Shown in pieces: positions 34,488 to 48,309 of a stretch of DNA of 64,000 nt (its first letter is position 1; every line of letters begins with the position of its first letter). The notes beneath the pieces were generated by a model. That model made no database searches. It was not told where the DNA came from and saw nothing but the letters and a program-made list of their open reading frames with translations. The position numbers and the translations under genes were made by a program. Origin of the DNA: Spirochaetaceae bacterium (GTDB taxonomy: Bacteria > Spirochaetota > Spirochaetia > Treponematales > Breznakiellaceae); contig JAITJI010000118.1 in NCBI GenBank assembly GCA_031279015.1, positions 33,105-97,104 on the forward strand. The letters are read 5' to 3'.

Positions 34488-35174
34488 CTACCCTTCCGCA
34501 GCCGGCGCTTCATCCTTTTCCGTTTCTTCCTTCCGCCGGGCAACTTCAGGATCGTACCGCAGTTCCAGAAATTTGTTCAGGTAAAACCGGGCGGATCGCG
34601 GATCTTCCAAATGGAATTGATAAATATCGGCGATAAAGAGAAAAAGGTACGGGGCGTTTCTGTTTGTCTCCGTGATGGGGATGAGGACGGAGAGGGCCTC
34701 CCTGTACAGGTTCCGGTTGAAGAGGAGAACCCCCTGTAAAAAACCGGTTTCTCCGGGATCGCCCCCTGCGTTTTGAGCCCGTGTTAAAAAGCTTTCGGCA
34801 GATTGCCAGTCTTTTTTCAGCATGGCCTCTCCGGTCCTGGTTAGAAGCTGCGCCGCAGAAACCATGTGCAGATACAGTATGTATGACGGGTCCGGAAAGG
34901 AGACCTCCAGTTGAAGTTCTTCATATCCTTCTTTCCGTGCAGTAACGGTATACTGCAATTTGGGTTTGATATCCGGAATAGTGAAATGGCCCTGAATATC
35001 GCTTGACACGATATGTTTACCATTTATGTATACCGCTGCGTTGTGTACCGGTTTGTTGTCCCCGTCGTAGATCATGCCGTAGAGGGCCTGTTCACGGTAT
35101 CTTCTTGAGGGGAAAGAGGTACAGGATGCCAGGATGGCAACAAAAAGTACGGCTGTGATTTTCCATTTTTTCAT
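34488..35174 (-). CDS. Lipoprotein with carboxypeptidase-regulatory-like domain and TPR-like region, last gene of T2SS operon
   Basis: Lipobox ILASC; DGDNKPVHNAAVYINGKHIVSSDIQGHFTIPDIKP; helical repeats. Confidence 0.75.
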   Translation of the reverse strand: MKKWKITAVLFVAILASCTSFPSRRYREQALYGMIYDGDNKPVHNAAVYINGKHIVSSDIQGHFTIPDIKPKLQYTVTARKEGYEELQLEVSFPDPSYILYLHMVSAAQLLTRTGEAMLKKDWQSAESFLTRAQNAGGDPGETGFLQGVLLFNRNLYREALSVLIPITETNRNAPYLFLFIADIYQFHLEDPRSARFYLNKFLELRYDPEVARRKEETEKDEAPAAEG

Positions 35175-36028
35175 GGATGGGTCCTCCCTGCAATAAATTG
35201 TGTTTCACCGATTTGGACAACATAGTGATCCGCTGCGGCGCTTATGAGGCGGTTTTCTCCTTCTGAATCCGTACCGGTACCAATTCTGAGTATCCGGCCG
35301 GATTCCCGTTCCTTTACATAGAGCCATTCGGCATTATCGCTGTCCCGGATTATGCCCAGGAAGGTTACCTGGTTTTCCAGCGGTTTGGAGGGGGGCAGGG
35401 GAGGCGGGCTTTCATCCTCCGTTCTGCCGGGGATGTCCGCCGGAACCGGTTTTTCCGCGGGACGGGGCGGATGGAAAGAGCGGGCGAGGATCCGGGGATC
35501 GGCAAGGCCCCTCTGCTCCGGCGGTTTTTTCCCGGCAATGCCGCTGCCGTTTTTCACCCGCAGGGTAATATCTGCAAGGGAGGAGCCGGCGGACGGCTTG
35601 ATACTTATACTGCTGATGTTAACAGAAGAACTGTTTTGGACCTCCGCAAGAAAACTGAAAAACTGAACCGGATTGCAACGAAGCGCAAATTCTGCCGTTT
35701 CATCGCTTCCCTTTCCGCTTATCCTCAGACGTTCAACCTGAATGACGTGATGCCGCAGCAGTGAACGTACTGTTTCGCCGGCAGGCCGCGGCGCGTCAGC
35801 CTGATCCTCCGCCCCGGAGGGGTTTTGTTCCAGCGCCGTCAGCCTGTCCCTGAGATCCGACAGTTGCCTTTCCGGAACAGAAGGGATGCGTTCCGCAGCC
35901 TCCCGGTAATGCCGGATCGATCTGTGGGTTTTGTACAGCCGGATCAGTTCACCGGCATTGCCGGCCGCCAGCAGCAGCGCAAGGCACAGGCCGGATATTG
36001 TTATGACCGTGGCGGATCTATCTTTCAT
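35171..36028 (-). CDS. GspM/PilO-like inner-membrane protein with C-terminal GspC-HR/PilP-like domain
   Basis: N-terminal TM plus coiled coil, ferredoxin-like region, Pro-rich linker, then VTFLGIIRDSDNAEWLYVKERESGRILRIGTGTDSEGENRLISAAADHYVVQIGETQFIAG. Confidence 0.6.
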   Translation of the reverse strand: MKDRSATVITISGLCLALLLAAGNAGELIRLYKTHRSIRHYREAAERIPSVPERQLSDLRDRLTALEQNPSGAEDQADAPRPAGETVRSLLRHHVIQVERLRISGKGSDETAEFALRCNPVQFFSFLAEVQNSSSVNISSISIKPSAGSSLADITLRVKNGSGIAGKKPPEQRGLADPRILARSFHPPRPAEKPVPADIPGRTEDESPPPLPPSKPLENQVTFLGIIRDSDNAEWLYVKERESGRILRIGTGTDSEGENRLISAAADHYVVQIGETQFIAGRTHP

Positions 36029-37124
36029 GAATAATATCTCCTGAAATTATAAATTGTTCTGCCCGGATCTTTGAGGGAGATGCCTGGTGCAGAACCATGC
36101 CGGAAAAACAGGGGGAGGATTCCAGAGCGTGTACCACTCCCAGGGAATCGGCGCCTTCCGCATCCAGGTTAAAACTTGTTTCCCCCAGCGACAGGGATCG
36201 TACCCAGGCGCCCTTAAGGCATGATTCCAGAACACAGATGATCCGGTAGAAATTCCGGTAAAAGACCCCCTGATTGTTTTGTGTGCGGCTGAGTATTTCT
36301 GTAATCTGCTGTTCATACCGGTTTGCGGATTCACGGGCTTCCAGTTTTTCGGTGTGGGCGTCTTTGACACGGGAGAGGATCCCTTCGTACCGCAGGGAAA
36401 GGGAGCGCAGCGGAAAGAACAGAATCCCCAGGCAAAGAACAAGACCGGCAAGGGCGGCGTGTCCGGGATTTCTCTGCTTTCTGCCGTTAAAGACGGCGTA
36501 CTTTTTTCCCCGTAACCCCGCCGCAAGGGTACTGAATTCCAGGGTGTTGACGGGGATACCCTTGAGTTCCCGGGCAGAGAGCAATGATTGGAGGGCGCCG
36601 TGCGGCGGTTCCCTGAGTATGGCGCTTACCGAAAACCCGTCCTTTTCCCCTTCGAGGCTGCCGCACAGAGACGGTATAAGGCCCGCCGGAATTCCGTCTT
36701 GCTCCCCGGCGGTCCAGGATGCGGAGGAATAGCCCGTAACCTCTCCGTTTTCAAACCGGGCCGCTTCCAGCCAGTCCTCCGTCAGGAGCAGGACCAGTTG
36801 TGTCTTTATGCCGGTTTTTTTTCGTCTTGCCATACGGGCCGCCAGGATCATAAAGAAAATGCCGGGGAAAAGGGTTTTGTCCTGCTTGGTACGGATGCTG
36901 CGTATTACCCGGGAGGTGACAAACACAATGGCCCGGTAACGGGGCGCCTGCGCCTTCCTTCCCCTGACGGGGCGGATATAATAGTCAAATTCCGTATCCC
37001 GGGGATCGCCGGGGTAGAGATTCTTCAGATGGGACTCTATGATAAGCCCGGGCGGTTGTGCCTTTAAGCGGGGAATATCCAGCAAAAATACCGGGAATTC
37101 TTCAGGTGAAATTAATAACATCAA
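36018..37124 (-). CDS. GspL-like (PilM/PilN-fused) type II secretion protein
   Basis: Cytoplasmic N-terminal domain, single TM (ALAGLVLCLGILFFPL), coiled coil and periplasmic domain; position in gsp operon. Confidence 0.65.
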   Translation of the reverse strand: MMLLISPEEFPVFLLDIPRLKAQPPGLIIESHLKNLYPGDPRDTEFDYYIRPVRGRKAQAPRYRAIVFVTSRVIRSIRTKQDKTLFPGIFFMILAARMARRKKTGIKTQLVLLLTEDWLEAARFENGEVTGYSSASWTAGEQDGIPAGLIPSLCGSLEGEKDGFSVSAILREPPHGALQSLLSARELKGIPVNTLEFSTLAAGLRGKKYAVFNGRKQRNPGHAALAGLVLCLGILFFPLRSLSLRYEGILSRVKDAHTEKLEARESANRYEQQITEILSRTQNNQGVFYRNFYRIICVLESCLKGAWVRSLSLGETSFNLDAEGADSLGVVHALESSPCFSGMVLHQASPSKIRAEQFIISGDIIHER

Positions 37125-38134
37125 TAGTACCTCTCTTCAATGATGATGTATTCCCCCGGTCCGTTTTGATCCGCCGCACCCCGCGGTAATCTGCATATCA
37201 CCGCCCGGCAGGAAAGCTCCCTGCCCTCTATGCGGACCTCCCAAAACCAGGTTATACACCCCAGGTATTGGAGAAGGGGATTGTCTGTACCGGTCCCCAG
37301 GATAAGGGAGAGTTTTTCCCTGTCCGGAATTCCTGCGGTGCGGAGATTTATCAGTTCCTGCCACCGTGTTTCCGGGGAACTTATTTTGTAATCCGGATAG
37401 GCGATCAGTTCTTTGAGCAGCAGCGAATCGATAAAATTGACGTTCATCAGGGGTTCCGTGTTAATCAGAGGAAAGAGGTCTCCGTAATGGATGCCGAGGA
37501 TCGATGCAAGGGATTCCCGGTCTGCCCGGGTCCGGTTAATGAGCAGGGTTTCTATCCTTTGCCGGATCGATTCGGCGGCGTGTTCCGAACCGGTCAGGGA
37601 AGACACAAGCGTCCGGGCGGCAAATTCATCGATCAGATTAATATTTGCCCAGCCATAGCAGGAAAAGTATTGTTCAAAAACCCCGTCGTCAAAAAAGCGG
37701 TGATAGGCGGCGGCAGACAGGGAAAGGCCATGGTCTTCCCTCCACTGCTGCAGATCATCCGCCGTAAAACCCGGTCTGAACAAGCGGGAAAGGGCTGTTT
37801 TTTCAAAGATATTTTTTCGGATAAAATTTGGATTCAGACGGTCCGAAACAGGGTTTATGGTAATGGTACAGCCGTCTTCGGTTGTGCCGTTCAGGGTCCA
37901 GACCGGATCGTCCGGCCCATTGCCGCCGGGACTGGGATCGGATGCCAGGGCGGCTCGAACCTTCTCCTGAATGATCTTTGCCGCCGCATATTCCCTGTTG
38001 TATCCCTTTGCCCTCTCCTCCGCCCTGATAAGCGGCGCAAGGCAATACCCAAGCCCGCCGGCAAGTGCGGAAAGCAGGAAAAGTGCATAGAGGAATTGGA
38101 GTGATGCAAAACCGGCGCTGCTGTGGTTTTTCAT
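37121..38134 (-). CDS. gspK: GspK-like minor pseudopilin
   Basis: Prepilin-like N-terminus SSAGFASLQFLYALFLLSALAG; about 340 aa with large C-terminal domain; operon position. Confidence 0.75.
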   Translation of the reverse strand: MKNHSSAGFASLQFLYALFLLSALAGGLGYCLAPLIRAEERAKGYNREYAAAKIIQEKVRAALASDPSPGGNGPDDPVWTLNGTTEDGCTITINPVSDRLNPNFIRKNIFEKTALSRLFRPGFTADDLQQWREDHGLSLSAAAYHRFFDDGVFEQYFSCYGWANINLIDEFAARTLVSSLTGSEHAAESIRQRIETLLINRTRADRESLASILGIHYGDLFPLINTEPLMNVNFIDSLLLKELIAYPDYKISSPETRWQELINLRTAGIPDREKLSLILGTGTDNPLLQYLGCITWFWEVRIEGRELSCRAVICRLPRGAADQNGPGEYIIIEERYY

Positions 38135-38706
38135 GGTCCTCCTCCTGCAAGGGGGGTGCATGAAAAATATGCCAGCGAATGAAATGTTGAACCGGAGCGG
38201 GTAAAGCTAAAGCCAATGCCCCGGAATATTTGGTTTTCATCCTCCAGCAAGGTCATGGCGATCCGGTCCGCCGATTCCCAGATGATGCTCCGTTCCTGGC
38301 CCCGGTGATCCCTGGTCTCCATGACAAGCCGGCCTTCTTCGATCCTGAAGCTCAGGGTGTGTTCCCGGATGCCCCCATACCAGGGGATGATAATCTCCTC
38401 CCCGGCAGGCGTTTGTATGATGCCCGGTCTCCGTTCCCAATAGGGAATAACAACAGCCCCAATCCCGGCGCGGATCCGGGTGTCCGCCCTGATGAGGGTC
38501 ACCGCCGTCAAGATCCTGTCCCGGGCCCGGGTAAAGAGTCCGGTGGAGGAGGAGAGCAGGCCGGAAAGGGTAAACATGCAGAGACTGGTAATGCAGAGTC
38601 CGGTCAGGACCTCCGGTATGGTAAATCCCCCTTCCTGTGACGGTTTCTCCGTTGTACTATCCCGCTCCGGCCGTATCCCCGGGGGACGTTTCCGCAGATT
38701 ATTCAT
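38131..38706 (-). CDS. gspJ: GspJ-like minor pseudopilin
   Basis: Prepilin motif QEGGFTIPEVLTGLCITSLCMF; operon position. Confidence 0.75.
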   Translation of the reverse strand: MNNLRKRPPGIRPERDSTTEKPSQEGGFTIPEVLTGLCITSLCMFTLSGLLSSSTGLFTRARDRILTAVTLIRADTRIRAGIGAVVIPYWERRPGIIQTPAGEEIIIPWYGGIREHTLSFRIEEGRLVMETRDHRGQERSIIWESADRIAMTLLEDENQIFRGIGFSFTRSGSTFHSLAYFSCTPLAGGGP

Positions 38707-38992
38707 CTGCCGCCCTCCCTCCGGAAAGCGGCCCGTCCCCGGTGCCGCCGGCCAGGGTGTTCCGTTCCTCAATCAGCCTGACCGCTGCGGCGATCCTGCC
38801 GGTAGCTGCCTTCCCCGCCGCTTCTATGCTTCCGTGGACCAGGAGCGCCGCGATGCCGGTGATGAAGAGGCACAGCAGGGCGTCGAGTAAAACAAAGCCC
38901 CCTTCCGGCCGCCGTTCTCCGTGAAACAAACTGTTGAACCGGTGATGGCGATTGTGTTGATCTTCATTCCCAGGATGTGATGTCCGCGTCAT
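38699..38992 (-). CDS. gspI: GspI-like minor pseudopilin
   Basis: Prepilin-like motif EGGFVLLDALLCLFITGIAALLVHG; operon position. Confidence 0.65.
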   Translation of the reverse strand: MTRTSHPGNEDQHNRHHRFNSLFHGERRPEGGFVLLDALLCLFITGIAALLVHGSIEAAGKAATGRIAAAVRLIEERNTLAGGTGDGPLSGGRAADE

Positions 38993-39428
38993 TTCCCTCG
39001 CCTCCTGCAAGTCCGTCTCCGCCAAAGGATCTGATGTCATAACCTGTACCGGCATGACCCGGTGAACGGTACTCATAGTCGTTCCCCCAGGGGTCCCTTG
39101 GTACGGCTTTGTTCAGGTAGGGACCGTTCCACATTCCTTTTTCCGGCTTCGTGTCCGGTTTTTCCCAAAGGGCGGACAGGCCCTGTAGTTCCGTGGGATA
39201 TTCTCCGCAGTCAAGGAAATAGGCGTCCAGGGAAAGGGCAAAGGTTTCTATCTGGCTTTTCGCAGTAACCACCTTTGCCCGGTCCAGGTATTTAACCGCC
39301 ATGAATCCTACGGAGGAAGTCAAAACCAGTATGATGCCGATTACGATGAGGGTTTCAATAAAGGTCCACCCTCCCGCCGGGTCCTGATAAGGGGGACAGT
39401 GTTTCTCCTGTCCGTTTTTAATATTCAT
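38964..39428 (-). CDS. gspG: Type II secretion major pseudopilin GspG
   Basis: GGWTFIETLIVIGIILVL prepilin motif; YPTELQGLSALW, GPYLNKAVPRDPWGNDYEYRSPG; C-terminal GGDG. Confidence 0.95.
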   Translation of the reverse strand: MNIKNGQEKHCPPYQDPAGGWTFIETLIVIGIILVLTSSVGFMAVKYLDRAKVVTAKSQIETFALSLDAYFLDCGEYPTELQGLSALWEKPDTKPEKGMWNGPYLNKAVPRDPWGNDYEYRSPGHAGTGYDIRSFGGDGLAGGEGNDADITSWE

Positions 39429-39437
39429 AGATGCCTC

Positions 39438-40592
39438 CTATATAAGGTTTCCGTATATTGAAAAGAGGGGAACTATAATGCCGGTTATCATGGCCAGCAT
39501 AAATACCCCCACGGCGGCTATCAGCGCCGGTTCTATGAGCAGCAGTAATCCTGTGGTCTGTCGTTCTATTTCTTCCTGGAAGAAGATGCGGATCCGGGAG
39601 AATATTTTTTCTGTTCTTCCGGATCGTTCTCCAACGGCAATCCACCGGCTCATGTAAACCGGAAAGATCTTTTCCTCTGAAAATGCCTTTGTGATGCTGC
39701 CGCCGTTTATGAGCTTCTCCCGGACTCTCCTCAGGGCCCGGCGATAAGCATGGTTTGTTGTTACCCCGGATGCTTCCCCAATCGCCGTCTCCACCGATAC
39801 GCCGCCGCCGGTTAAAACCTCCATGGCAAAGGTAAAGTTAAGGCTTTCCCAGGAAGAGAAGAATCTGCCAAAGAGGGGCAGGCGAAACAGGAGCGCGTCC
39901 CTGAAGCAGGCAAAGTCTTCATTTGTCCTGCCTGCCCTTTTTGCCAGGAGGAATCCTGCTGTACAGAGGATCAACAGCGCCGGCAGGGCGATGAGTAAAA
40001 TTTCCGCGGTGCGGATGTTTGCCTGTATCTGTTCCGCCGCCTTCCCGGCAAAACCTGCAAAGACAGCTTCCAGTTTTGGGATCACGAACAGAACAAGCCC
40101 AAGCCCTCCCGATACCGCTGCGCCGAGGACCAGGACCGGATAGGCCAGGGCTGCGGAAATTTTGTCCCGCAGTTTTTTTTGATCCCTCAGGTATGCACTG
40201 AGCCGCGGAAATATGCCCTCCACCGATCCGGCCTTATCCCCAATCCCGATCATGCCCCGGTATATGGGTGAAAAGGCGTCCTCCATTGAAGAAACCGCCC
40301 GGGCAAAGGAAAAACCCTTTCTGATAAGGATGGAAAGCCGCTGTCCCAGAAGGCCCGCCGCGGATTTTCCGTTAATCGAAGTAAACACCTCCAGGGCATC
40401 TTTCAGGGAGAGGCCCGAACCGATGAGCAGTTCCATCATTTCGGTAAATTCGAGGACGGCTTTTTTTGAAGGGTTTCCCCTGTTCCGGAAAACAAGGCGC
40501 CCTGTCCCCCTGTTCCGCTCCGGATCCTGTCTGCGGATATAAACAGGATTCGTGCTTTCTTCAATATTACAGCGGAAGTATTCCATCTTCAT
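39438..40592 (-). CDS. gspF: Type II secretion inner-membrane platform protein GspF
   Basis: EMMELLIGSGLSLKDALEVF, SPIYRGMIGIGDKAGSVEGIFPRLSAYLRDQKKLRDKISAALAYP. Confidence 0.93.
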   Translation of the reverse strand: MKMEYFRCNIEESTNPVYIRRQDPERNRGTGRLVFRNRGNPSKKAVLEFTEMMELLIGSGLSLKDALEVFTSINGKSAAGLLGQRLSILIRKGFSFARAVSSMEDAFSPIYRGMIGIGDKAGSVEGIFPRLSAYLRDQKKLRDKISAALAYPVLVLGAAVSGGLGLVLFVIPKLEAVFAGFAGKAAEQIQANIRTAEILLIALPALLILCTAGFLLAKRAGRTNEDFACFRDALLFRLPLFGRFFSSWESLNFTFAMEVLTGGGVSVETAIGEASGVTTNHAYRRALRRVREKLINGGSITKAFSEEKIFPVYMSRWIAVGERSGRTEKIFSRIRIFFQEEIERQTTGLLLLIEPALIAAVGVFMLAMITGIIVPLFSIYGNLI

Positions 40593-42081
40593 CTCCCGGG
40601 GGAATAACAATTTCCCGCACAATTTCCCTAATGGTTGTGATGCCCTCCGCTGCCTTCTTTACGCCTTCCCGGAAGAGGCCGTCCATGCCCCGCTGCCTGA
40701 GGTAGGCGGCGATGACTGTGGTCTTCCCCCCGCCCTGGATCAATTCCTCCAGGCCGGGATCGCTTTGAAACAGTTCCGCTACTACTGTTCTGCCAAGGAA
40801 GCCTGTATAACCGCAGATTTGACAACCCCCGGCGGTGTAGAGAGTCCCCGCCGCGGCCCCGGCCATGTGCAGAATCCGGAGATCCTCCGGTGAAGGGTCC
40901 GCGGGTTTTTTGCAGTGGGGACAGAGGCGGCGGACCAATCGCTGGGCGGCTGCGCCCCGTAGTACCGATGCGATAAGGTATGATTCCATGCCCATATTGA
41001 TAAGCCGGGGGATCACCGAAACCGTATCATTGGTGTGGAGGGTTGACAGCACCAGATGTCCTGTCAGGGCCGCCCTCAGGGCTATCTCTGCTGTGGCGGA
41101 ATCCCGAATCTCCCCTATCATGATCACATTGGGGTCCTGGCGCAGCACCCTGCGGAGGAGCACCTCAAAACCGAGACCTATTTGTTCGTTTATCTGAATC
41201 TGATTTACCCCGGGGACAATAAATTCCACCGGGTCCTCAATGGTGATTATTTTTACCGCATCGGATACGATCTCCCCAAGCATGGCGTTCAACGTTGTGG
41301 TTTTGCCGCTTCCCGTTGGCCCGGTCAGGAGAATCAGTCCGTGGGGAATCCGGATCATCCGTCTGAGCTGGGCAAGCTGTCCGGCGCTGAACCCGAGCTC
41401 CGCCAGGGTGGAAGCCTCTGACTGCCGTCCCAGGATTCGCAGCACGATGGATTCTCCTCCGCTCACCGGTATTATTGATACCCTCAGGTCAACGTCAAAT
41501 TCCCCCAGGGATACGGTGATCCTGCCGTCCTGGGGCTGCCGCCGTTCCAGGATGTTCAGGTTGGCCATGATCTTGATGCGGGATGAAATAGCGGGAAACC
41601 GGCTGTTTTCAATGGTCCGAACCGTCCGCAGCACCCCGTCAATGCGGTACCGTACCCGGATTGCATCTCCGCCAGCCTCCACATGAATGTCTGAAGCGCC
41701 GGAACGGATCCCCTCAATGCAGATGGAGTTAACCAGGTTGATCACCGGTGCATCATTCGCCAATTTGTCCAACAGAACCCGGTCATCCGCAATGGCAGGG
41801 GACACTTCCTTCTCCGGGGCATCGGTCTCTCCAAGCCGGTTTCCCAGGTAGGCGGATAATTCCGCACCCTCCATGGGAATAAAATTTATATGTTTCTTGT
41901 GAAAATTTTGTAAGATGAATTTTGTTTCCTTCTGTTCTTTTTCGGTGATGCCAATCTCCACGGAGTCTTCATTTTCCCGCAGTTTTATTACCCCGTTAAA
42001 ATTGATAAATTCAACGGGATACTGATCCGGACCTTCAGGCAGGGGACTGTATCTGCCCAGGACACCCTTTGTCTGTATCAT
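40567..42081 (-). CDS. gspE: Type II secretion ATPase GspE
   Basis: Walker A GPTGSGKTTTLNAML, IITIEDPVEFIVPGVNQIQINEQIGLGFEVLLRRVLRQDPNVIMIGEIRD, Zn-binding CPHC...CQICGYTG. Confidence 0.96.
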   Translation of the reverse strand: MIQTKGVLGRYSPLPEGPDQYPVEFINFNGVIKLRENEDSVEIGITEKEQKETKFILQNFHKKHINFIPMEGAELSAYLGNRLGETDAPEKEVSPAIADDRVLLDKLANDAPVINLVNSICIEGIRSGASDIHVEAGGDAIRVRYRIDGVLRTVRTIENSRFPAISSRIKIMANLNILERRQPQDGRITVSLGEFDVDLRVSIIPVSGGESIVLRILGRQSEASTLAELGFSAGQLAQLRRMIRIPHGLILLTGPTGSGKTTTLNAMLGEIVSDAVKIITIEDPVEFIVPGVNQIQINEQIGLGFEVLLRRVLRQDPNVIMIGEIRDSATAEIALRAALTGHLVLSTLHTNDTVSVIPRLINMGMESYLIASVLRGAAAQRLVRRLCPHCKKPADPSPEDLRILHMAGAAAGTLYTAGGCQICGYTGFLGRTVVAELFQSDPGLEELIQGGGKTTVIAAYLRQRGMDGLFREGVKKAAEGITTIREIVREIVIPPGDEDGILPL

Positions 42082-44240
42082 CCTTGTTTCCCTCTAATAA
42101 AAGCATGGTAATACCCTTCTATCCGCCGGGATACATCCTGTTCTCCATTTTCATCCCGGCAGATATACGGCACTATGTAAATAACAATTTCTGTTTTTTC
42201 TTTAGTGTCTCCCTGATCCCGGAACAGAAAACCCAGGATGGGGATGTCTCCCAGAATGGGAAACTTTTTTCTGTTCCTGTTGACGTCTTCCTTCATGAGG
42301 CCTGAGAGGATTATCGGTTTTCCCGACGGAGTACGGATATGGGTGTTTACGATCCGTTCCGATGTTGACGGAATGGCCGCGGCGTCTCCCGAGCCGTTGT
42401 TGTTCTGTTTTGAGACGGTGGCATTGACGGACATGGTGATCATATCATCCCCGGAAACCCATCCGTTGAGTGCTACGATCAGGCCTGAACTGATCTCCCG
42501 GGTGACTCCTGTCCGGGTGATGCTGCCGGTGTCGGCGTCGACCTCGAATTCCTGATAGCGGTAGGTGTCGGTGTTCTGAAATTTTATCTCCTGTCCTGAC
42601 AATCCGTTCAGAGTAGTATCGGCGTATACCTGGGCGGTGTTTTCCCCAAGCTGAATACTCAGATTTGCCGCAAACTGATATCCAAATTTTGCCACCACAT
42701 CAAAATTCAAATTGAAAATATTTGACATATTTCCCAGAAAAGAAGTTCCGGGCCTTTCCTCTGTTTTCCCGGCGGAGATGTTTCTGCCGATTTTTATTTC
42801 ATTGTTTTTCATGTATTCAATAACCAGTAACTCATAGCGAATCTGTGGTTTTGGCCGATCTATCAGGGCAAGCTCCCGGAGAAACTCCTCCCGCTTTTCC
42901 CGTCCTCCGGTAAAGAAAAACAGATTGGGAAAACCGGAATCGACCAGATCTTCCCTGGTGACCGAAGGGGGCAGCGTCTTGAAGAGTTCGTCGCTTTTGA
43001 TGTATTTAAGGGTGACAGGATAAGTTTCCTCCTGCCTGTCGATGACGGCAAGGTACTCCTCCAGGGCGGCGTGTCCTTCCGGGCTGCCAAGGGCTACAAA
43101 GGCGTTTACCCCGGGAACAAGAACGGGCGGTACGGGAACCAGCTTTTGCGGGAGAGTCCCGATGATATCCCGGGCATTAAGGTGCCGTATTTCAAAACGC
43201 CGGTAGGCCAGCCCATCCGCCGGGTGATCGATCTGTTCTATAAAATTGACAACAGGATTGATCTCTTCCGGCGTTCCCGTCAGGATCAGGGCGTTGTTGT
43301 TCCTGTCTATTTTGATGATGTTGCCGGCGGCCATTTCTGCAGGCAGTAGGGACGGAAATTCCTGGGCAGAAAGGGTACGCAGTCCGATGATGCGGGTCTC
43401 TTTAAGTTTTTTCAGGGTATCCCTGCGCTGGAGTTCAACGATATAGTACATATCATTCCGGAGGATATAATCCGCATTGCCCTGTTCAAGGATAAGCCGG
43501 AGCATGGTTTCAAAATCCTTGTCCGCAAAATAGCAATTATCCAGCACGGCGTCGGTTTTTGTTAACAGGGAATATTCCCTTTCCGCTTTTTCAAAGAACT
43601 CCGCCAGGAGTTCCTGAAAGCGAATCTGATCCACGTTGACAGAATAGGCATCGCCGGAACGGACGACAGATTTTCTGCCGGGCCGGTTTCGTTCCTGAAT
43701 ATCCGCCGGCAGACGACGGATGTAATAGTAATCCTCCCCTCTTTCAAGGGAATAGCCGGAAAGCCGCAGCATACATATTTCCAGCGCCTTTTGTACTTCC
43801 AGGTTATTCACCGCTACACTGATGGCAATCTGCGGGAGAGGATCGTAGAGAATAGAAGTTTTTATAGTTTTTGCCATAGCCCTGAGCAGCTTTTCAATGT
43901 CCACGCCGTCACCCTGTATGCTGATCCGGCCGGATGCATCGTCCCACGAAAGGTTTATTCGGGACACCCGGATGATGTTTCCCTCCCGCCTGTAGTAGAA
44001 CTTGTAGTTTGAAAGAAACAGCGCCAGGGATTCTTCAAAATCTGATTCGCTGAAATGAAACGAAGCGGTTCCATCCACGGTTTCATCAGGAATGATCGAG
44101 GTGTTTGAAGCTTCCGCAAGCACCATGAGGATATCGACAATGGATTGATTTCTGAAATCCATGCTCCTGATTCGCTGGGCCGCCGCAGATTGGCTTACCC
44201 AGAGGATAAGGAGGATCACGATGCAGTTCCTGTAAGACAT
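42078..44240 (-). CDS. gspD: Type II secretion secretin GspD
   Basis: Signal peptide, repeated N domains, secretin domain ending RIVNTHIRTPSGKPIILSGLMKEDVNRNRKKFPILGDIPILGFLFRDQGDTKEKTEIVIYIVPYI. Confidence 0.94.
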   Translation of the reverse strand: MSYRNCIVILLILWVSQSAAAQRIRSMDFRNQSIVDILMVLAEASNTSIIPDETVDGTASFHFSESDFEESLALFLSNYKFYYRREGNIIRVSRINLSWDDASGRISIQGDGVDIEKLLRAMAKTIKTSILYDPLPQIAISVAVNNLEVQKALEICMLRLSGYSLERGEDYYYIRRLPADIQERNRPGRKSVVRSGDAYSVNVDQIRFQELLAEFFEKAEREYSLLTKTDAVLDNCYFADKDFETMLRLILEQGNADYILRNDMYYIVELQRRDTLKKLKETRIIGLRTLSAQEFPSLLPAEMAAGNIIKIDRNNNALILTGTPEEINPVVNFIEQIDHPADGLAYRRFEIRHLNARDIIGTLPQKLVPVPPVLVPGVNAFVALGSPEGHAALEEYLAVIDRQEETYPVTLKYIKSDELFKTLPPSVTREDLVDSGFPNLFFFTGGREKREEFLRELALIDRPKPQIRYELLVIEYMKNNEIKIGRNISAGKTEERPGTSFLGNMSNIFNLNFDVVAKFGYQFAANLSIQLGENTAQVYADTTLNGLSGQEIKFQNTDTYRYQEFEVDADTGSITRTGVTREISSGLIVALNGWVSGDDMITMSVNATVSKQNNNGSGDAAAIPSTSERIVNTHIRTPSGKPIILSGLMKEDVNRNRKKFPILGDIPILGFLFRDQGDTKEKTEIVIYIVPYICRDENGEQDVSRRIEGYYHAFIRGKQG

Positions 44241-44375
44241 GTTTGTTTTTCCTCCGCCTGAATATTTTTCCCGGAATTGGCAGCATCGATCCGGCGCTGC
44301 TGCCACAGGGATTACTATATATACGATGCGGATGTGGAAATTGCTTTTACCGGAGGAAAAAAATTTTAAATTTTT

Positions 44376-44822
44376 TTAAAAAAGACCGGAAAGACAGTAG
44401 GCCGTCACCGCTCCAAGGCTTAAGAAGGGGGCAAAGGGAATGGGATGTCCGGAATTCTCCGTTGAAAGGCGCCGCCTTACCAGGGCGCCGGCGATTCCCG
44501 TCAATGCGGCAATGGCAAAGGCCAGAAACGCCCCCGGGAGGCCGCAGAACAATCCGACAAGGGCGGCAAATTTTATGTCCCCAATGCCCAGCCCCCGGGT
44601 GCCTAATCGGACGCAGAAAAAAAGGACCCCGCCAAAAAGGGCGGCTCCTCCGTGGCCGGGCAGCGATTCCGGAAGGGCAAAGACCCGAATTGCAAGGATG
44701 ATGAAGAAACAGGGCAGACTCAGCAGATCCGGTATACGGTAACTGCGGATGTCCGTTATCGATATGGGTATGGCAAAGAGCACAAAGACGCAGAGGATAA
44801 GCCGGGTGTAAAGGGTTGTCAT
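44376..44822 (-). CDS. Short prepilin peptidase (A24 family)
   Basis: TDIRSYRIPDLLSLP and GLGIGDIKFAALVGLF catalytic Asp motifs; only 148 aa. Confidence 0.88.
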   Translation of the reverse strand: MTTLYTRLILCVFVLFAIPISITDIRSYRIPDLLSLPCFFIILAIRVFALPESLPGHGGAALFGGVLFFCVRLGTRGLGIGDIKFAALVGLFCGLPGAFLAFAIAALTGIAGALVRRRLSTENSGHPIPFAPFLSLGAVTAYCLSGLF

Positions 44823-44831
44823 GAGCCTGCC

Positions 44832-45710
44832 TCAGTAATAAGATATCCGGTAATCCCCGATTGTCTTGAAGCCGAGCCGCCGGTATACGGTTTGGGCGGT
44901 GGCGTTATGCTTCTTGACAAAAAGGGTCACCCCCCGGCCTTTGGCGGTAAGCTCCAAAACCAGGGCAGCGGTCATGGTGGTAGCTATGCCAAGCCCCCGG
45001 TAGTCGGGATGTACATACACCCCGCCAAGTTGATACCGGGTAAAGGAAACAGCGTTGGTGTTTATCTTGGCAACTATGCGGCCATCCAGTTCTGCCGCCA
45101 ACATGTGTTCCCGGAGGACTATTTGTTCCAGAGACAGCCTGGAAGAGAGGGGGCTGTACACGGCGCCCTTGGGCAGCACCTCTTCCTTCTCATAGGCTGT
45201 CTGGAGGGGAAGGAGTTTTTCCAAATCGGACATATCGGGGGTCCGCAGGTGTAATCCTGCAGGCCCACGGCGCAACAGCATCCGCAGCCGTCCGTTTAAG
45301 GCTTCGGGATCAGGTTCCGCATCCAGGCTCATCAGATCGTAATCGATCCGATCCATGGCGGTGTATACCGGCTGCAACGCCCCCTCCAGCAGCTCCGCGT
45401 CCTCCCGCAGTCCCTGGATCGCATGGAGGGGCCGCGTCCCGGGGAGGAGCCTCAAAAACCGGGGGGCAGGGACGAGCCTTTGACCGTTAAATACCGGAAG
45501 CAGGGACTGACGGCTCCGGATTAAAAGCGCCGGTACCGGCTCCCCAATTCTTCTTCCGGGACCGGCGCTGTACCACACCTGGTCGTCGCCGGGGTTGAGG
45601 TGCAGGAATCGTGCGCAGGCCGTGGTACAGTAGGGTTCCATCTGCCGCAGAAAGGCTTCACAGGCGGCATGTTCCCCCTTTTTCATCCTGCGCCAACGGA
45701 AAGAATCCAT
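44832..45710 (-). CDS. GNAT family N-acetyltransferase
   Basis: YQLGGVYVHPDYRGLGIATTMTAALVLEL, TVYRRLGFKTIGDYRISYY. Confidence 0.9.
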   Translation of the reverse strand: MDSFRWRRMKKGEHAACEAFLRQMEPYCTTACARFLHLNPGDDQVWYSAGPGRRIGEPVPALLIRSRQSLLPVFNGQRLVPAPRFLRLLPGTRPLHAIQGLREDAELLEGALQPVYTAMDRIDYDLMSLDAEPDPEALNGRLRMLLRRGPAGLHLRTPDMSDLEKLLPLQTAYEKEEVLPKGAVYSPLSSRLSLEQIVLREHMLAAELDGRIVAKINTNAVSFTRYQLGGVYVHPDYRGLGIATTMTAALVLELTAKGRGVTLFVKKHNATAQTVYRRLGFKTIGDYRISYY

Positions 45711-47371
45711 CACAGGGGAAGCTTTCCCCGGGCGGGTATTCTACCCAGGAGGGCGGAGAAGCCCGCCACAAAGGATTCCGGCGCGTAACTGTACACCGCA
45801 ATAGCGCCGTCAACCCAGGGCGCCTCCTCCAGATACACCGGGCTTAACACCGAAAAGAGAATCACCCGTTTCCCCAGGGGCCTGAGGAATTTGAGCAGCT
45901 TCAAACCTTCCGCATTGGAAATGCAGAAGATGATCGTGTCCGCTTCACCGGCGTAATACAAAAATTCCGCGGCGGGCCATTCGTCGGAGTACCAATAGGA
46001 ACGGGCCCCGGGATAGGCGTTTCTTCCGGCGTTGAAAAAATCGATAAACTGTCCTGCCAGGAGAACCTTTCCCGCATCTTCGGCACGCAGGGGAATTCCG
46101 GCCGTATCGGCGCCGTTCACCACCGTGACGCTTCGGGCCGCAAGGTCGAGGAAAAAGGCAGCCCCCTCCGGGTCGGGGAGTTTCTCTTCAACCTGCTGCG
46201 GGTCCGGAATACGGGGAACCGCCTTGTCCCCCCGCAGGTAGCGGAGCTTGGCGGTGAGTATCCGCAGGGCCGCATCCCGGACCCGGTCCCGGAACAGGGG
46301 ATCTTCCCTCATGGCGGCGGTGAGACTTGTCCAGACCGGATCGCCCAGGTTAGGGGTCTTTGAAAGCATGATGATATCATTGCCCGCCAGCAGGGCCTGT
46401 TTTGCCGCCCGGGAGAGACTGCCTGCGCTGAGGGTTGCCCCGTTCATCATGAGGTCGTCGGTGATGATAAGCCCTTCATAACCGATACGTTCCCGGAGTA
46501 TATCCCGGAGAAACCAGGACGAAAGGGATGCGGGAACCATCCCTGCGGGGGTTTGCGGAAAGGCGAGGTGGCCGCTCATGATCGCGGGAAGCCGTTCCCG
46601 GGCGAGGATTCGGTAGGGGACCAGTTCCCGGTCCCAGAGCACCTCAAAGGGGATGTCAATCCGGGGAAGCACTCCATGGGAATCCAGGTCCGTATCCCCG
46701 TGGCCGGGGTAGTGTTTGGCTGTGGCGATGATCCCCGCCGCTCCCTGGCCCTTCGCAAAGGCCGCCCCCAGAATCCCCGCCTGACGGGGATCGCTGCCGA
46801 AGGATCGGGGGCCTATCAGGGTGGAACCCCGGTTTGTGTAGAGGTCCACCGTGGGAGCAAAGTTCATGTTGATTCCCAGGAGGGCCAGTTCCCGGCCAAT
46901 ATAGTAGCCCGAAAGGTAGGCGTCCCGGGGAAAACCCGATGCGCCGATGGCCATATTCCCCGGAGTTTCGCTGGTGGCGCCCTTTACGTGCCGAATCCAT
47001 CCCCCCTCCTGATCGGTGGCTACAAAGAGGGGGATGCCGTAGGGCCCTTCCATGGAGGTCTTCTGCAGGGCGCCCACCGTTTCCGCCAGCTTCAGGGTGT
47101 CTCCGGTATTCCAGCCAAATATCTTCACCCCGCCGATGTTCCGCCCTTGAATCCAGTCCATGATGAGAGGCGACGGGGTGGCCCCAACCCAACCGAGCAT
47201 GAAGGTCTGGGCCAGGATATCCTCATCGGTCATCCGGTCGAGGATCCGTGCAGCCAGGACCTCCGCCTCTTCCGGATCATCAAAATGCAGGGCGGCAAGC
47301 CCTTTCCCGGAGACGGGGAAGAACAAAAGAGCCAGGACCAGCACGATCCCGGGAATGCAGGCGCCCCTCAC
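45710..47371 (-). CDS. Glycoside hydrolase family 3, beta-N-acetylhexosaminidase-like
   Basis: VATDQEGGWIRHVKG, ATAKHYPGHGDTDLDSHGVLPRID, LIITDDLMMNGATLSAG. Confidence 0.92.
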   Translation of the reverse strand: MRGACIPGIVLVLALLFFPVSGKGLAALHFDDPEEAEVLAARILDRMTDEDILAQTFMLGWVGATPSPLIMDWIQGRNIGGVKIFGWNTGDTLKLAETVGALQKTSMEGPYGIPLFVATDQEGGWIRHVKGATSETPGNMAIGASGFPRDAYLSGYYIGRELALLGINMNFAPTVDLYTNRGSTLIGPRSFGSDPRQAGILGAAFAKGQGAAGIIATAKHYPGHGDTDLDSHGVLPRIDIPFEVLWDRELVPYRILARERLPAIMSGHLAFPQTPAGMVPASLSSWFLRDILRERIGYEGLIITDDLMMNGATLSAGSLSRAAKQALLAGNDIIMLSKTPNLGDPVWTSLTAAMREDPLFRDRVRDAALRILTAKLRYLRGDKAVPRIPDPQQVEEKLPDPEGAAFFLDLAARSVTVVNGADTAGIPLRAEDAGKVLLAGQFIDFFNAGRNAYPGARSYWYSDEWPAAEFLYYAGEADTIIFCISNAEGLKLLKFLRPLGKRVILFSVLSPVYLEEAPWVDGAIAVYSYAPESFVAGFSALLGRIPARGKLPL

Positions 47372-48309
47372 CGGTAGACTTCATCCTTTAACGCATCAAT
47401 GTAAGCGGCGGCGCTGTGGGCCGCCACGGCTCCCTCTCCGGCGGCGACAACCACCTGCCGGAAAGGGCTGGAACGGACATCCCCCGCCACAAAAAGCCCC
47501 GGCAGGGAACTGGCCATCCTCTGATCGGTCACCAGGTAACCGTTTTCATCGGTCTTGAGGTCCGGCGCCAGGGAGGCTTGGGGAGAAGCTCCGGCAAAGA
47601 TAAACACCGCTTCCGCCTCTTCCTCGTATGTCTCCCCCCGATCCGTCCGTTCCAGTACCACCGATGCAACCTGCCTTTCCCCCCGAATCTCCAGCAGCCG
47701 GGTGTTGAATCGAACTTCAATGGCGGGGTTGTGCAGCACCCGTTCCGCCAGGGCCTTCTGGGCCCGGAATTTTTCCCGCCGGTGAATGAGAATCACCCGG
47801 GAAGACAGGCGGGAGAGGTATTGGGCCTCATCACAGGCCGTATCCCCGCCCCCCGCCACCAGTATCTTTTTCCCCTTAAAGAAGGGCCCGTCACAGACGG
47901 CGCAGTAAGAAACCCCCCGGCCGTAGAACTCCGCCTCTCCCGGTATGTTCAGGGTATGGTGCCTTGTACCGGTGGCGAGGATCACCGCGCAGGCGCTCTT
48001 TTTTTCGCCGTTTCCCAGGCCCAGGATGAAAGCATCTCCCTCTTTGCGGAGGGATACTACGGTCTCACTGAGAAACCGGGCGCCGAATTTTTCAGCCTGA
48101 CGGCGGAGGTCTTCAGCAAAATCATACCCTGTTTTTTCGGGAAATATCCCGGGATAATTTTCCAGCGTATCGATGTTCAGCGCCTGGCCTCCCGGGGCAA
48201 GCTGTTCAATGACAAGAACGTCCAGACTGGCCCGGCTGCCGTACTGGGCCGCGGTCAGACCCGCAGGCCCTGCGCCGATGATTATCAGATCGAAGTCAGG
48301 TTTTACCAT
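47368..48309 (-). CDS. trxB: Thioredoxin-disulfide reductase
   Basis: DLIIIGAGPAGLTAAQYGSRA, SYCAVCDGPFFKGKKILVAGGGDTA, GLFVAGDVRSSPFRQVVVAAGEGAVAA. Confidence 0.94.
   Translation of the reverse strand: MVKPDFDLIIIGAGPAGLTAAQYGSRASLDVLVIEQLAPGGQALNIDTLENYPGIFPEKTGYDFAEDLRRQAEKFGARFLSETVVSLRKEGDAFILGLGNGEKKSACAVILATGTRHHTLNIPGEAEFYGRGVSYCAVCDGPFFKGKKILVAGGGDTACDEAQYLSRLSSRVILIHRREKFRAQKALAERVLHNPAIEVRFNTRLLEIRGERQVASVVLERTDRGETYEEEAEAVFIFAGASPQASLAPDLKTDENGYLVTDQRMASSLPGLFVAGDVRSSPFRQVVVAAGEGAVAAHSAAAYIDALKDEVYR

What the first reader, a model, noticed from the sequence alone, without database searches (positions are those of the whole stretch)
34488..44822. Compact, divergent type II secretion system in a spirochaete
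One minus-strand run encodes a short prepilin peptidase, then GspD, E, F, G, I, J, K, L, M/C-like and a lipoprotein, nearly all with overlapping stops and starts. No GspH or stand-alone GspC is visible. Spirochaete T2SSs are little studied, and secretion of glycoside hydrolases (GH1, GH3 and GH51 genes lie in the window) would fit a gut fibre-degrading lifestyle, but that link is inference.
Basis: partly seen in the sequence, partly recalled or inferred. Interest (0 to 1): 0.72.

Follow-up and report, generated by a model that had tools for sequence, protein, structure and literature searches.

The report
Spirochaete secretion system with fused subunits
A gut spirochaete carries one compact machine of the kind bacteria use to push folded proteins through their outer membrane, and two of its inner-membrane parts (GspM and GspC), normally separate proteins, are joined into one, a fusion that has arisen several times in spirochaetes and bears on how many copies of each part the machine contains.

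Summary
In detail: 34488-44822 (minus strand) is one run of overlapping genes, gspO-D-E-F-G-I-J-K-L-[M/C]-lipoprotein. It holds the only secretin and the only GspE-type ATPase found in this MAG, and no PilT. GspG passes its curated T2SS cut-off; D, E and F score best against T2SS models, though below cut-off. GspH was not found.

GspC is not missing. Gene 35171-36028 is a GspM-GspC fusion: an N-terminal membrane anchor with a PulM/PilO-like ferredoxin domain, a disordered proline-rich linker, and a C-terminal HR domain matching GspC profiles (hhalign 95.6%, E 1e-8). Relatives such as Brucepastera encode M and C separately, each with its own anchor; the fusion has lost C's. Other treponemes fuse L, M and C into one ~570-aa, single-anchor protein. 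Of 41 resolved loci, 22 are L-M-C, 8 M-C and 11 separate; the tree needs at least three M-C fusions and one L-M-C fusion.

Korotkov et al. (2011) used rare PilO-PilP fusions in pili to suggest GspM:GspC = 1:1; Klebsiella measurements gave 1:2. These are direct T2SS examples. T2SS in Spirochaetes is already reported; the fused platform appears undescribed in the library searched. Secretion of the window's glycoside hydrolases is not supported.

The parts
44376..44822 (-). gspO, prepilin peptidase, 148 aa; single A24 domain with both catalytic Asp motifs (TDIRSYRIPD, GIGD), no N-methyltransferase domain
   Evidence: PF01478 E 1e-14; orthologues in 22 loci
42078..44240 (-). gspD secretin, 720 aa (ORF open to 44306); N0 weak, STN/Secretin_N repeats, C-terminal secretin domain, short C-terminal tail
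   Evidence: PF00263 E 1e-29, PF03958, PF07660; best NCBIfam TIGR02517, below cut-off; nearest solved structure by sequence is a T2SS GspD; only secretin in the genome
40567..42081 (-). gspE assembly ATPase, 504 aa, tetracysteine motif present
   Evidence: TIGR02533 491 bits, below cut-off 630; best PDB hit GspE; only PF00437 member in the genome
39438..40592 (-). gspF platform protein
   Evidence: PF00482 E 5e-36; TIGR02120 186 bits, below cut-off
38964..39428 (-). gspG major pseudopilin; leader G|WTFIE and the C-terminal GGEGNDADI segment
   Evidence: PF08334 E 1e-36; TIGR01710 130 bits, above cut-off 89
38699..38992 (-). gspI-like minor pseudopilin with about 65 mature residues, essentially the N-terminal helix only
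   Evidence: class III leader G|FVLLD; conserved position and length in relatives
38131..38706 (-). gspJ minor pseudopilin, leader G|FTIPE
   Evidence: profile-profile match to E. coli GspJ, 94%, E 1e-7, over the N-terminal helix
37121..38134 (-). gspK minor pseudopilin, leader G|FASLQ (no Glu5)
   Evidence: iterated spirochaete profile reaches a gammaproteobacterial protein with T2SSK_1st above cut-off
36018..37121 (-). gspL: reduced actin-like cytoplasmic domain, one TM (~224-242), PilN-like periplasmic domain
   Evidence: iterated profile reaches PilN/T2SSL proteins above cut-off; homologous half of the L-M-C model matches PilM, cyto-EpsL and PulL
35549..36028 (-). GspM half of the GspM-GspC fusion: TM helix, helical stalk and ferredoxin-like domain (residues 1-160)
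   Evidence: AlphaFold pLDDT mostly 85-97; Foldseek PulM C-terminal domain and PilO, prob 1.00
35378..35548 (-). low-confidence proline-rich linker with the LAxxF motif (residues 161-217); C's own TM anchor is missing here
   Evidence: pLDDT mostly 44-67; alignment to separate C genes
35171..35377 (-). GspC HR-domain half of the fusion (residues 218-285), six predicted strands
   Evidence: hhalign of spirochaete C against GspC (PF11356) proteins, 95.6%, E 1.2e-8; pLDDT mostly above 90
34488..35174 (-). lipoprotein: lipobox Cys18, carboxypeptidase-regulatory-like beta-sandwich, TPR region; candidate secretin pilotin
   Evidence: PF13620 E 1e-7, just under cut-off; TPR match to PDB; co-occurs with GspE in 26 of 34 genomes that have either

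Best explanation
This is a type II secretion system in which GspM and the secretin-binding HR domain of GspC are one polypeptide. Inferred working: the short pseudopilus (G plus I, J, K) is built by GspE/F, and GspL couples GspE to GspM. Each GspM carries, on a flexible linker, one HR domain that docks on the N0 ring of the GspD secretin, so the inner-membrane platform is tied covalently to the arm that reaches the outer-membrane pore and M:C is fixed at 1:1. The co-encoded TPR lipoprotein probably helps the secretin reach or assemble in the outer membrane (a PilF/TadD-like role; inferred). Shown here: gene content, fusion, loss of C's anchor, single copy of the system, recurrence in relatives. 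Inferred: secretion activity, docking, stoichiometry, pilotin role, substrates.
For: T2SS composition in one locus; single secretin and ATPase, no PilT; M half = PulM/PilO by fold; C half = GspC HR by profile, and the M/C profile reaches PF11356 proteins in gammaproteobacteria; M and C are separate genes, each with one TM, in Brucepastera (closed genome) and ten other contigs, overlapping in nine of the eleven; the L-M-C fusion model matches PilM/EpsL, PulL and PilO; no second C/HR gene in this genome; at least four independent changes on the D+E+F tree; 22 L-M-C, 8 M-C and 11 separate among resolved loci.
Against: D, E and F score below the NCBIfam T2SS cut-offs. GspE phylogeny leaves T2SS or T4P sistership open. 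The HR half was not singled out by Foldseek: the best relevant hit, PilP, is E 0.1. The MAG is about 90% complete, so a lone gspC could be in the missing part. No expression or secretion data exist.
Confidence: 0.85

Rival explanations
1. It is a type IV pilus or DNA-uptake pilus rather than a protein-secretion system.
For: GspE groups apart from the sampled T2SS ATPases; ComEC is present in the genome; the prepilin peptidase and secretin are shared types.
Against: No PilT or any second PF00437 ATPase; GspG above its T2SS cut-off; GspK/L/C kin; all in one locus; ComEC occurs in 167 of 200 family genomes while the GspE gene occurs in 28, so the two are not linked.
Confidence: 0.1
2. The M-C fusion is an assembly or sequencing artefact that joined two genes.
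For: The window comes from a fragmented MAG (138 contigs), and the nearest relative L053 ends inside the M half.
Against: An indel error would leave C's membrane-anchor sequence in another frame; instead it is absent, and only about 22 residues separate the M fold from the LAxxF motif. The isolate Treponema bryantii B25 and several other genomes show M-C fusions with one TM.
Confidence: 0.03
3. It is a decaying or silent T2SS.
For: GspH missing, GspI reduced to a helix, single-domain peptidase.
Against: No stops in any gene, catalytic motifs intact; the same reductions are conserved across many relatives.
Confidence: 0.07
4. The C-terminal domain is a GspB- or PilP-like periplasmic domain rather than GspC HR.
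For: Two spirochaete C proteins weakly hit T2SSB (E 0.009); PilP appears in the Foldseek list.
Against: The profile match is to GspC, and stand-alone C has the GspC layout of one TM, linker, short conserved motif and terminal HR. HR and PilP domains are related folds, so the functional reading (secretin contact) would hardly change.
Confidence: 0.1

Closest known systems
Type II secretion systems of Proteobacteria (Pul of Klebsiella, Xps of Xanthomonas, Gsp of E. coli)
   Same: GspD, E, F, G, I, J, K, L, M, O and a GspC HR domain in one operon
   Different: M and C fused; no GspH, no PDZ domain, no separate C anchor; GspI helix-only; single-domain peptidase; TPR lipoprotein in the operon
PilO-PilP gene fusions of type IV pili (e.g. 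Pseudomonas putida Q88CU9, cited in PMC3169554)
   Same: Fusion of the homologous pair (PilO = GspM, PilP = GspC HR) in the same order
   Different: There in a type IV pilus and described as a few cases; here in a T2SS, recurrent, and in sister lineages extended to GspL
GspL as a PilM+PilN fusion (PMC10191384)
   Same: Platform proteins merging into fewer polypeptides
   Different: L-M-C proteins of relatives join PilM+PilN+PilO+PilP equivalents in one chain with one TM
Leptospira and other Spirochaetes T2SS (PMC4793230, PMC6668835)
   Same: Same phylum, T2SS-like loci
   Different: Leptospirales GspE lies in a different part of the tree; fusion not reported there
PilF / TadD TPR pilotins (PMC10499894)
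   Same: TPR lipoprotein made with a secretin
   Different: Here preceded by a carboxypeptidase-regulatory-like domain; pilotin role only inferred

Membership tests
Type II secretion system | Secretin GspD | tested here: met
   PF00263; best-scoring NCBIfam model is TIGR02517, below its cut-off; best PDB hits T2SS GspD
Type II secretion system | Assembly ATPase GspE and platform GspF | tested here: met
   TIGR02533 and TIGR02120 are the best models, both below cut-off
Type II secretion system | Major pseudopilin GspG | tested here: met
   TIGR01710 130 bits, cut-off 89
Type II secretion system | Minor pseudopilins GspI, J, K | tested here: met
   leaders and synteny; K through T2SSK_1st kin, J by profile, I by position and leader only
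Type II secretion system | Minor pseudopilin GspH | tested here: not met
   no gene between gspG and gspI; the one N_methyl-like hit in the genome is at gspG. I treat H as dispensable for membership, from general knowledge; this was not tested
Type II secretion system | GspL and GspM platform proteins | tested here: met
Type II secretion system | GspC HR domain that reaches the secretin | tested here: met
   as a domain fused to GspM, without its own TM. Contact with the secretin itself not tested
Type II secretion system | No retraction ATPase, system in one locus | tested here: met
Type II secretion system | GspD/GspE branch with known T2SS | tested here: inconclusive
   GspE forms its own clade apart from both sampled groups; no GspD tree with PilQ references was made
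Type II secretion system | Secretes folded periplasmic proteins | not testable with these tools
   needs a mutant and secretome
Type IVa pilus | PilT retraction ATPase | tested here: not met
   one PF00437 protein in the genome, GspE
Type IVa pilus | Separate PilM, PilN, PilO and PilP | tested here: not met
   L joins the M and N equivalents; M/C joins the O and P equivalents
PilF/TadD-type TPR pilotin | Lipobox and TPR fold, encoded with a secretin | tested here: met
PilF/TadD-type TPR pilotin | Needed for secretin localisation | not testable with these tools
   needs experiment

The most novel reading that the evidence does not exclude
Repeated M-C and L-M-C fusions show that the working T2SS platform has GspC, GspL and GspM in equal numbers (six CLM columns), so the 12-copy GspC seen in Klebsiella is a lineage or preparation feature, and the separate membrane anchors of GspC and even GspM are dispensable for a working machine.
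Probability: 0.35. Interest if true: 0.75.

Novelty: new variant of a known kind. Interest (0 to 1): 0.55.

Why it matters
How many GspC copies link the six-fold inner platform to the 15-fold secretin is open: Klebsiella measurements give C:E:L:M = 2:1:1:1 (PMC6882859), while the Xanthomonas model has six 1:1:1 CLM columns (PMC11981180). Korotkov et al. 2011 argued for GspM:GspC = 1:1 from rare PilO-PilP fusions in pili and called that evidence indirect. Here are recurrent fusions inside T2SS, in organisms that include cultured isolates (T. bryantii M-C; B. parasyntrophica separate), so stoichiometry and the need for the GspC/GspM transmembrane segments can be tested directly. Annotation models that demand a separate gspC or gspM may undercount such systems.

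Tried and rejected
Direct Pfam scans of I, J, K, L and M/C: nothing usable. Profile searches of PDB sequences with the C, M, L and K alignments: no true relative. hhalign against single E. coli GspK, GspL and GspC: not significant, single-sequence profiles. GspE trees: own clade, sister group unresolved, few T4P references available. Competence reading: ComEC is nearly universal in the family and not linked to the T2SS. Flanking genes argG/argH, GNAT, GH3, TrxR and GH51: not conserved next to the T2SS. Promoter-like sites at chance level. Literature: no description of M-C or L-M-C fusion in T2SS found in the held library; subscription papers are not covered.

Full report
WHAT IS THERE. The minus-strand run 44822 to 34488 contains eleven genes in the order gspO, D, E, F, G, I, J, K, L, M/C, lipoprotein. 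All junctions overlap or lie within 10 nt except the 135-nt gap between gspO and gspD. Pfam and NCBIfam identify O, D, E, F and G directly; GspG passes the curated T2SS cut-off (130 against 89 bits), while D, E and F have T2SS models as best match but fall below the cut-offs. The genome (a MAG of 2.69 Mb, 138 contigs, 89.9% complete) has one secretin and one PF00437 ATPase, both in this locus, and hence no PilT. The nearest named sequences are spirochaetes: a Treponema MAG at 89% over the available part of GspE (its contig ends there), Brucepastera parasyntrophica at 70%, other Treponema MAGs, and T. bryantii at 56%.

RELATIVES. Flanks of the GspE matches were compared with iterated profiles of each window gene. 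The same block, O-D-E-F-G-I-J-K-L-M-C-lipoprotein, recurs, whole or cut by contig ends and with some local rearrangements, in about 20 spirochaete contigs. The flanking genes tested (argininosuccinate genes, GNAT, GH3, thioredoxin-reductase-like, GH51) do not recur beside it. In the window's family the lipoprotein and GspE genes co-occur: 26 genomes have both, 2 only GspE, 6 only the lipoprotein, 166 neither (Fisher p about 1e-24, relatedness not corrected).

THE FUSION. The 285-aa gene 35171-36028 is the key feature. In Brucepastera (closed genome) and eight other contigs its two halves match two adjacent overlapping genes; in two further contigs (L017, L023) they match genes at separate places in the cluster. 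Separate M and C proteins each have a predicted TM anchor at the N terminus; the fused protein has one in all. AlphaFold (33-row alignment, mean pLDDT 82) gives a long TM helix and stalk, an alpha-beta-beta-alpha-beta-beta ferredoxin-like domain, a low-confidence linker (about 161-217) and a six-stranded C-terminal domain. Foldseek places the first part with PilO and with the PulM C-terminal domain, probability 1.00. The C part is GspC-like by profile-profile comparison with GspC proteins that pass PF11356 (95.6%, E 1.2e-8, over 61 columns). Foldseek lists PilP, the HR homologue, only weakly (E 0.1), so the HR assignment rests on sequence profiles, synteny and predicted strands. No second copy of either half is found in the genome. 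An indel artefact is unlikely because C's anchor sequence is absent rather than out of frame, and because an isolate genome (T. bryantii B25) has the same architecture.

WIDER PATTERN. Termite-gut and other treponemes carry one protein of about 450-670 aa that combines L, M and C with, in nearly all, one TM near the L position. An AlphaFold model of one of them matches PilM and cyto-EpsL/PulL (cytoplasmic part), the PulL/EpsL periplasmic domain, and PilO. Across 200 family and 394 order genomes (overlapping sets), 41 loci could be classed from open frames: 22 L-M-C, 8 M-C, 11 separate. On a D+E+F tree of 32 loci, M-C occurs at three places separated by well-supported branches (window; T. bryantii pair; L031), and the fewest changes of state among labelled rows is four. 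Because canonical T2SSs keep L, M and C apart, and a fission would have to regain a membrane anchor, repeated fusion is the simpler direction (inference). The order L, M, C in the fused chains equals the gene order, and all three proteins have the same topology (cytoplasmic N terminus, periplasmic C terminus; established knowledge), so each fusion only has to remove a stop and an anchor.

HOW IT PROBABLY WORKS. From established knowledge of T2SS: GspE/F polymerise G-I-J-K pseudopilins, L links E to M, and the GspC HR domain binds the N0 domain of GspD (PMC3169554). Here each M carries its own HR domain on a flexible linker. That fixes M:C at 1:1 unless the chain is cut, and in L-M-C relatives fixes L:M:C at 1:1:1. 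A flexible linker is also what the Xanthomonas model invokes to bridge six arms to fifteen secretin subunits (PMC11981180). The TPR lipoprotein is a reasonable pilotin candidate, as PilF and TadD are TPR lipoproteins acting on secretins (PMC10499894), but this is inference. Substrates are unknown. Of the window's glycoside hydrolases only the GH3 at 45710-47371 has a signal peptide in its N terminus, and its position is not conserved; GH51 lacks one (read from the sequence, no signal-peptide program was run).

ALTERNATIVES. A pilus or DNA-uptake role is disfavoured by the lack of PilT, by GspG, by the GspK/L/C kin and by the lack of linkage with ComEC, but GspE phylogeny does not settle the matter: spirochaete GspE forms its own clade next to both sampled T2SS and Bacillota T4P ATPases. 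The system could be silent; gene integrity and conserved reductions across relatives argue otherwise.

NOVELTY. T2SS in Spirochaetes has been reported in a survey (PMC6668835; see also PMC4793230, on incomplete Leptospira systems). PilO-PilP fusions in pili were noted in 2011 and used to suggest GspM:GspC = 1:1 (PMC3169554). I found no report of GspM-GspC or GspL-GspM-GspC fusion in T2SS in the held library, which does not cover most subscription journals. Klebsiella measurements give two GspC per GspM (PMC6882859), and earlier work held that self-interaction of GspC and GspM transmembrane segments is needed for full function (PMC3815138). The fusions speak to both points and can be tested in cultured species. 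I rate the locus a new variant of a known kind.

Noticed in passing
window 38699-38992 and alignment A9: GspI in these spirochaetes is about 50-65 mature residues, essentially the N-terminal pilin helix without a globular head.
   Followed up: partly
window 44376-44822: Prepilin peptidase is a single A24 domain without the N-methyltransferase part, as in relatives.
   Followed up: partly
L033, L124, L126, L127, L129: Some L-M-C proteins (about 450-500 aa) have lost most of the actin-like cytoplasmic L domain; their single TM lies near residue 70-130.
   Followed up: partly
L132 (Brucepastera genome, 2324000-2342000): A second, divergent T2SS about 55 kb from the first, with L split over two frames (200 and 243 aa) and a separate C.
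   Followed up: partly
L133 and L134 (one order genome, G377): One genome carries two T2SS loci, one of M-C type and one of L-M-C type.
   Followed up: partly
L029 12925-21456 (Treponema socranskii): The cluster stops after gspG and a short gspI-like frame and is followed by a very large (at least 2747 aa) repeat-type secreted-looking ORF instead of J-K-L-M-C-lipoprotein.
   Followed up: no
L012, L013 (Treponema bryantii and kin): The block is split into two convergent halves: D-E-F on one strand and G-I-J-K-L-M/C-lipoprotein-O on the other.
   Followed up: no
window 44832-48309: Overlapping genes for a thioredoxin-reductase-like protein, a signal-peptide-bearing GH3 and a GNAT acetyltransferase run directly into gspO and may share its transcript.
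   Followed up: partly
whole genome, G000:C29:6484-7266: ComEC is present here and in 167 of 200 family genomes, although only about 28 of these carry the T2SS ATPase.
   Followed up: partly
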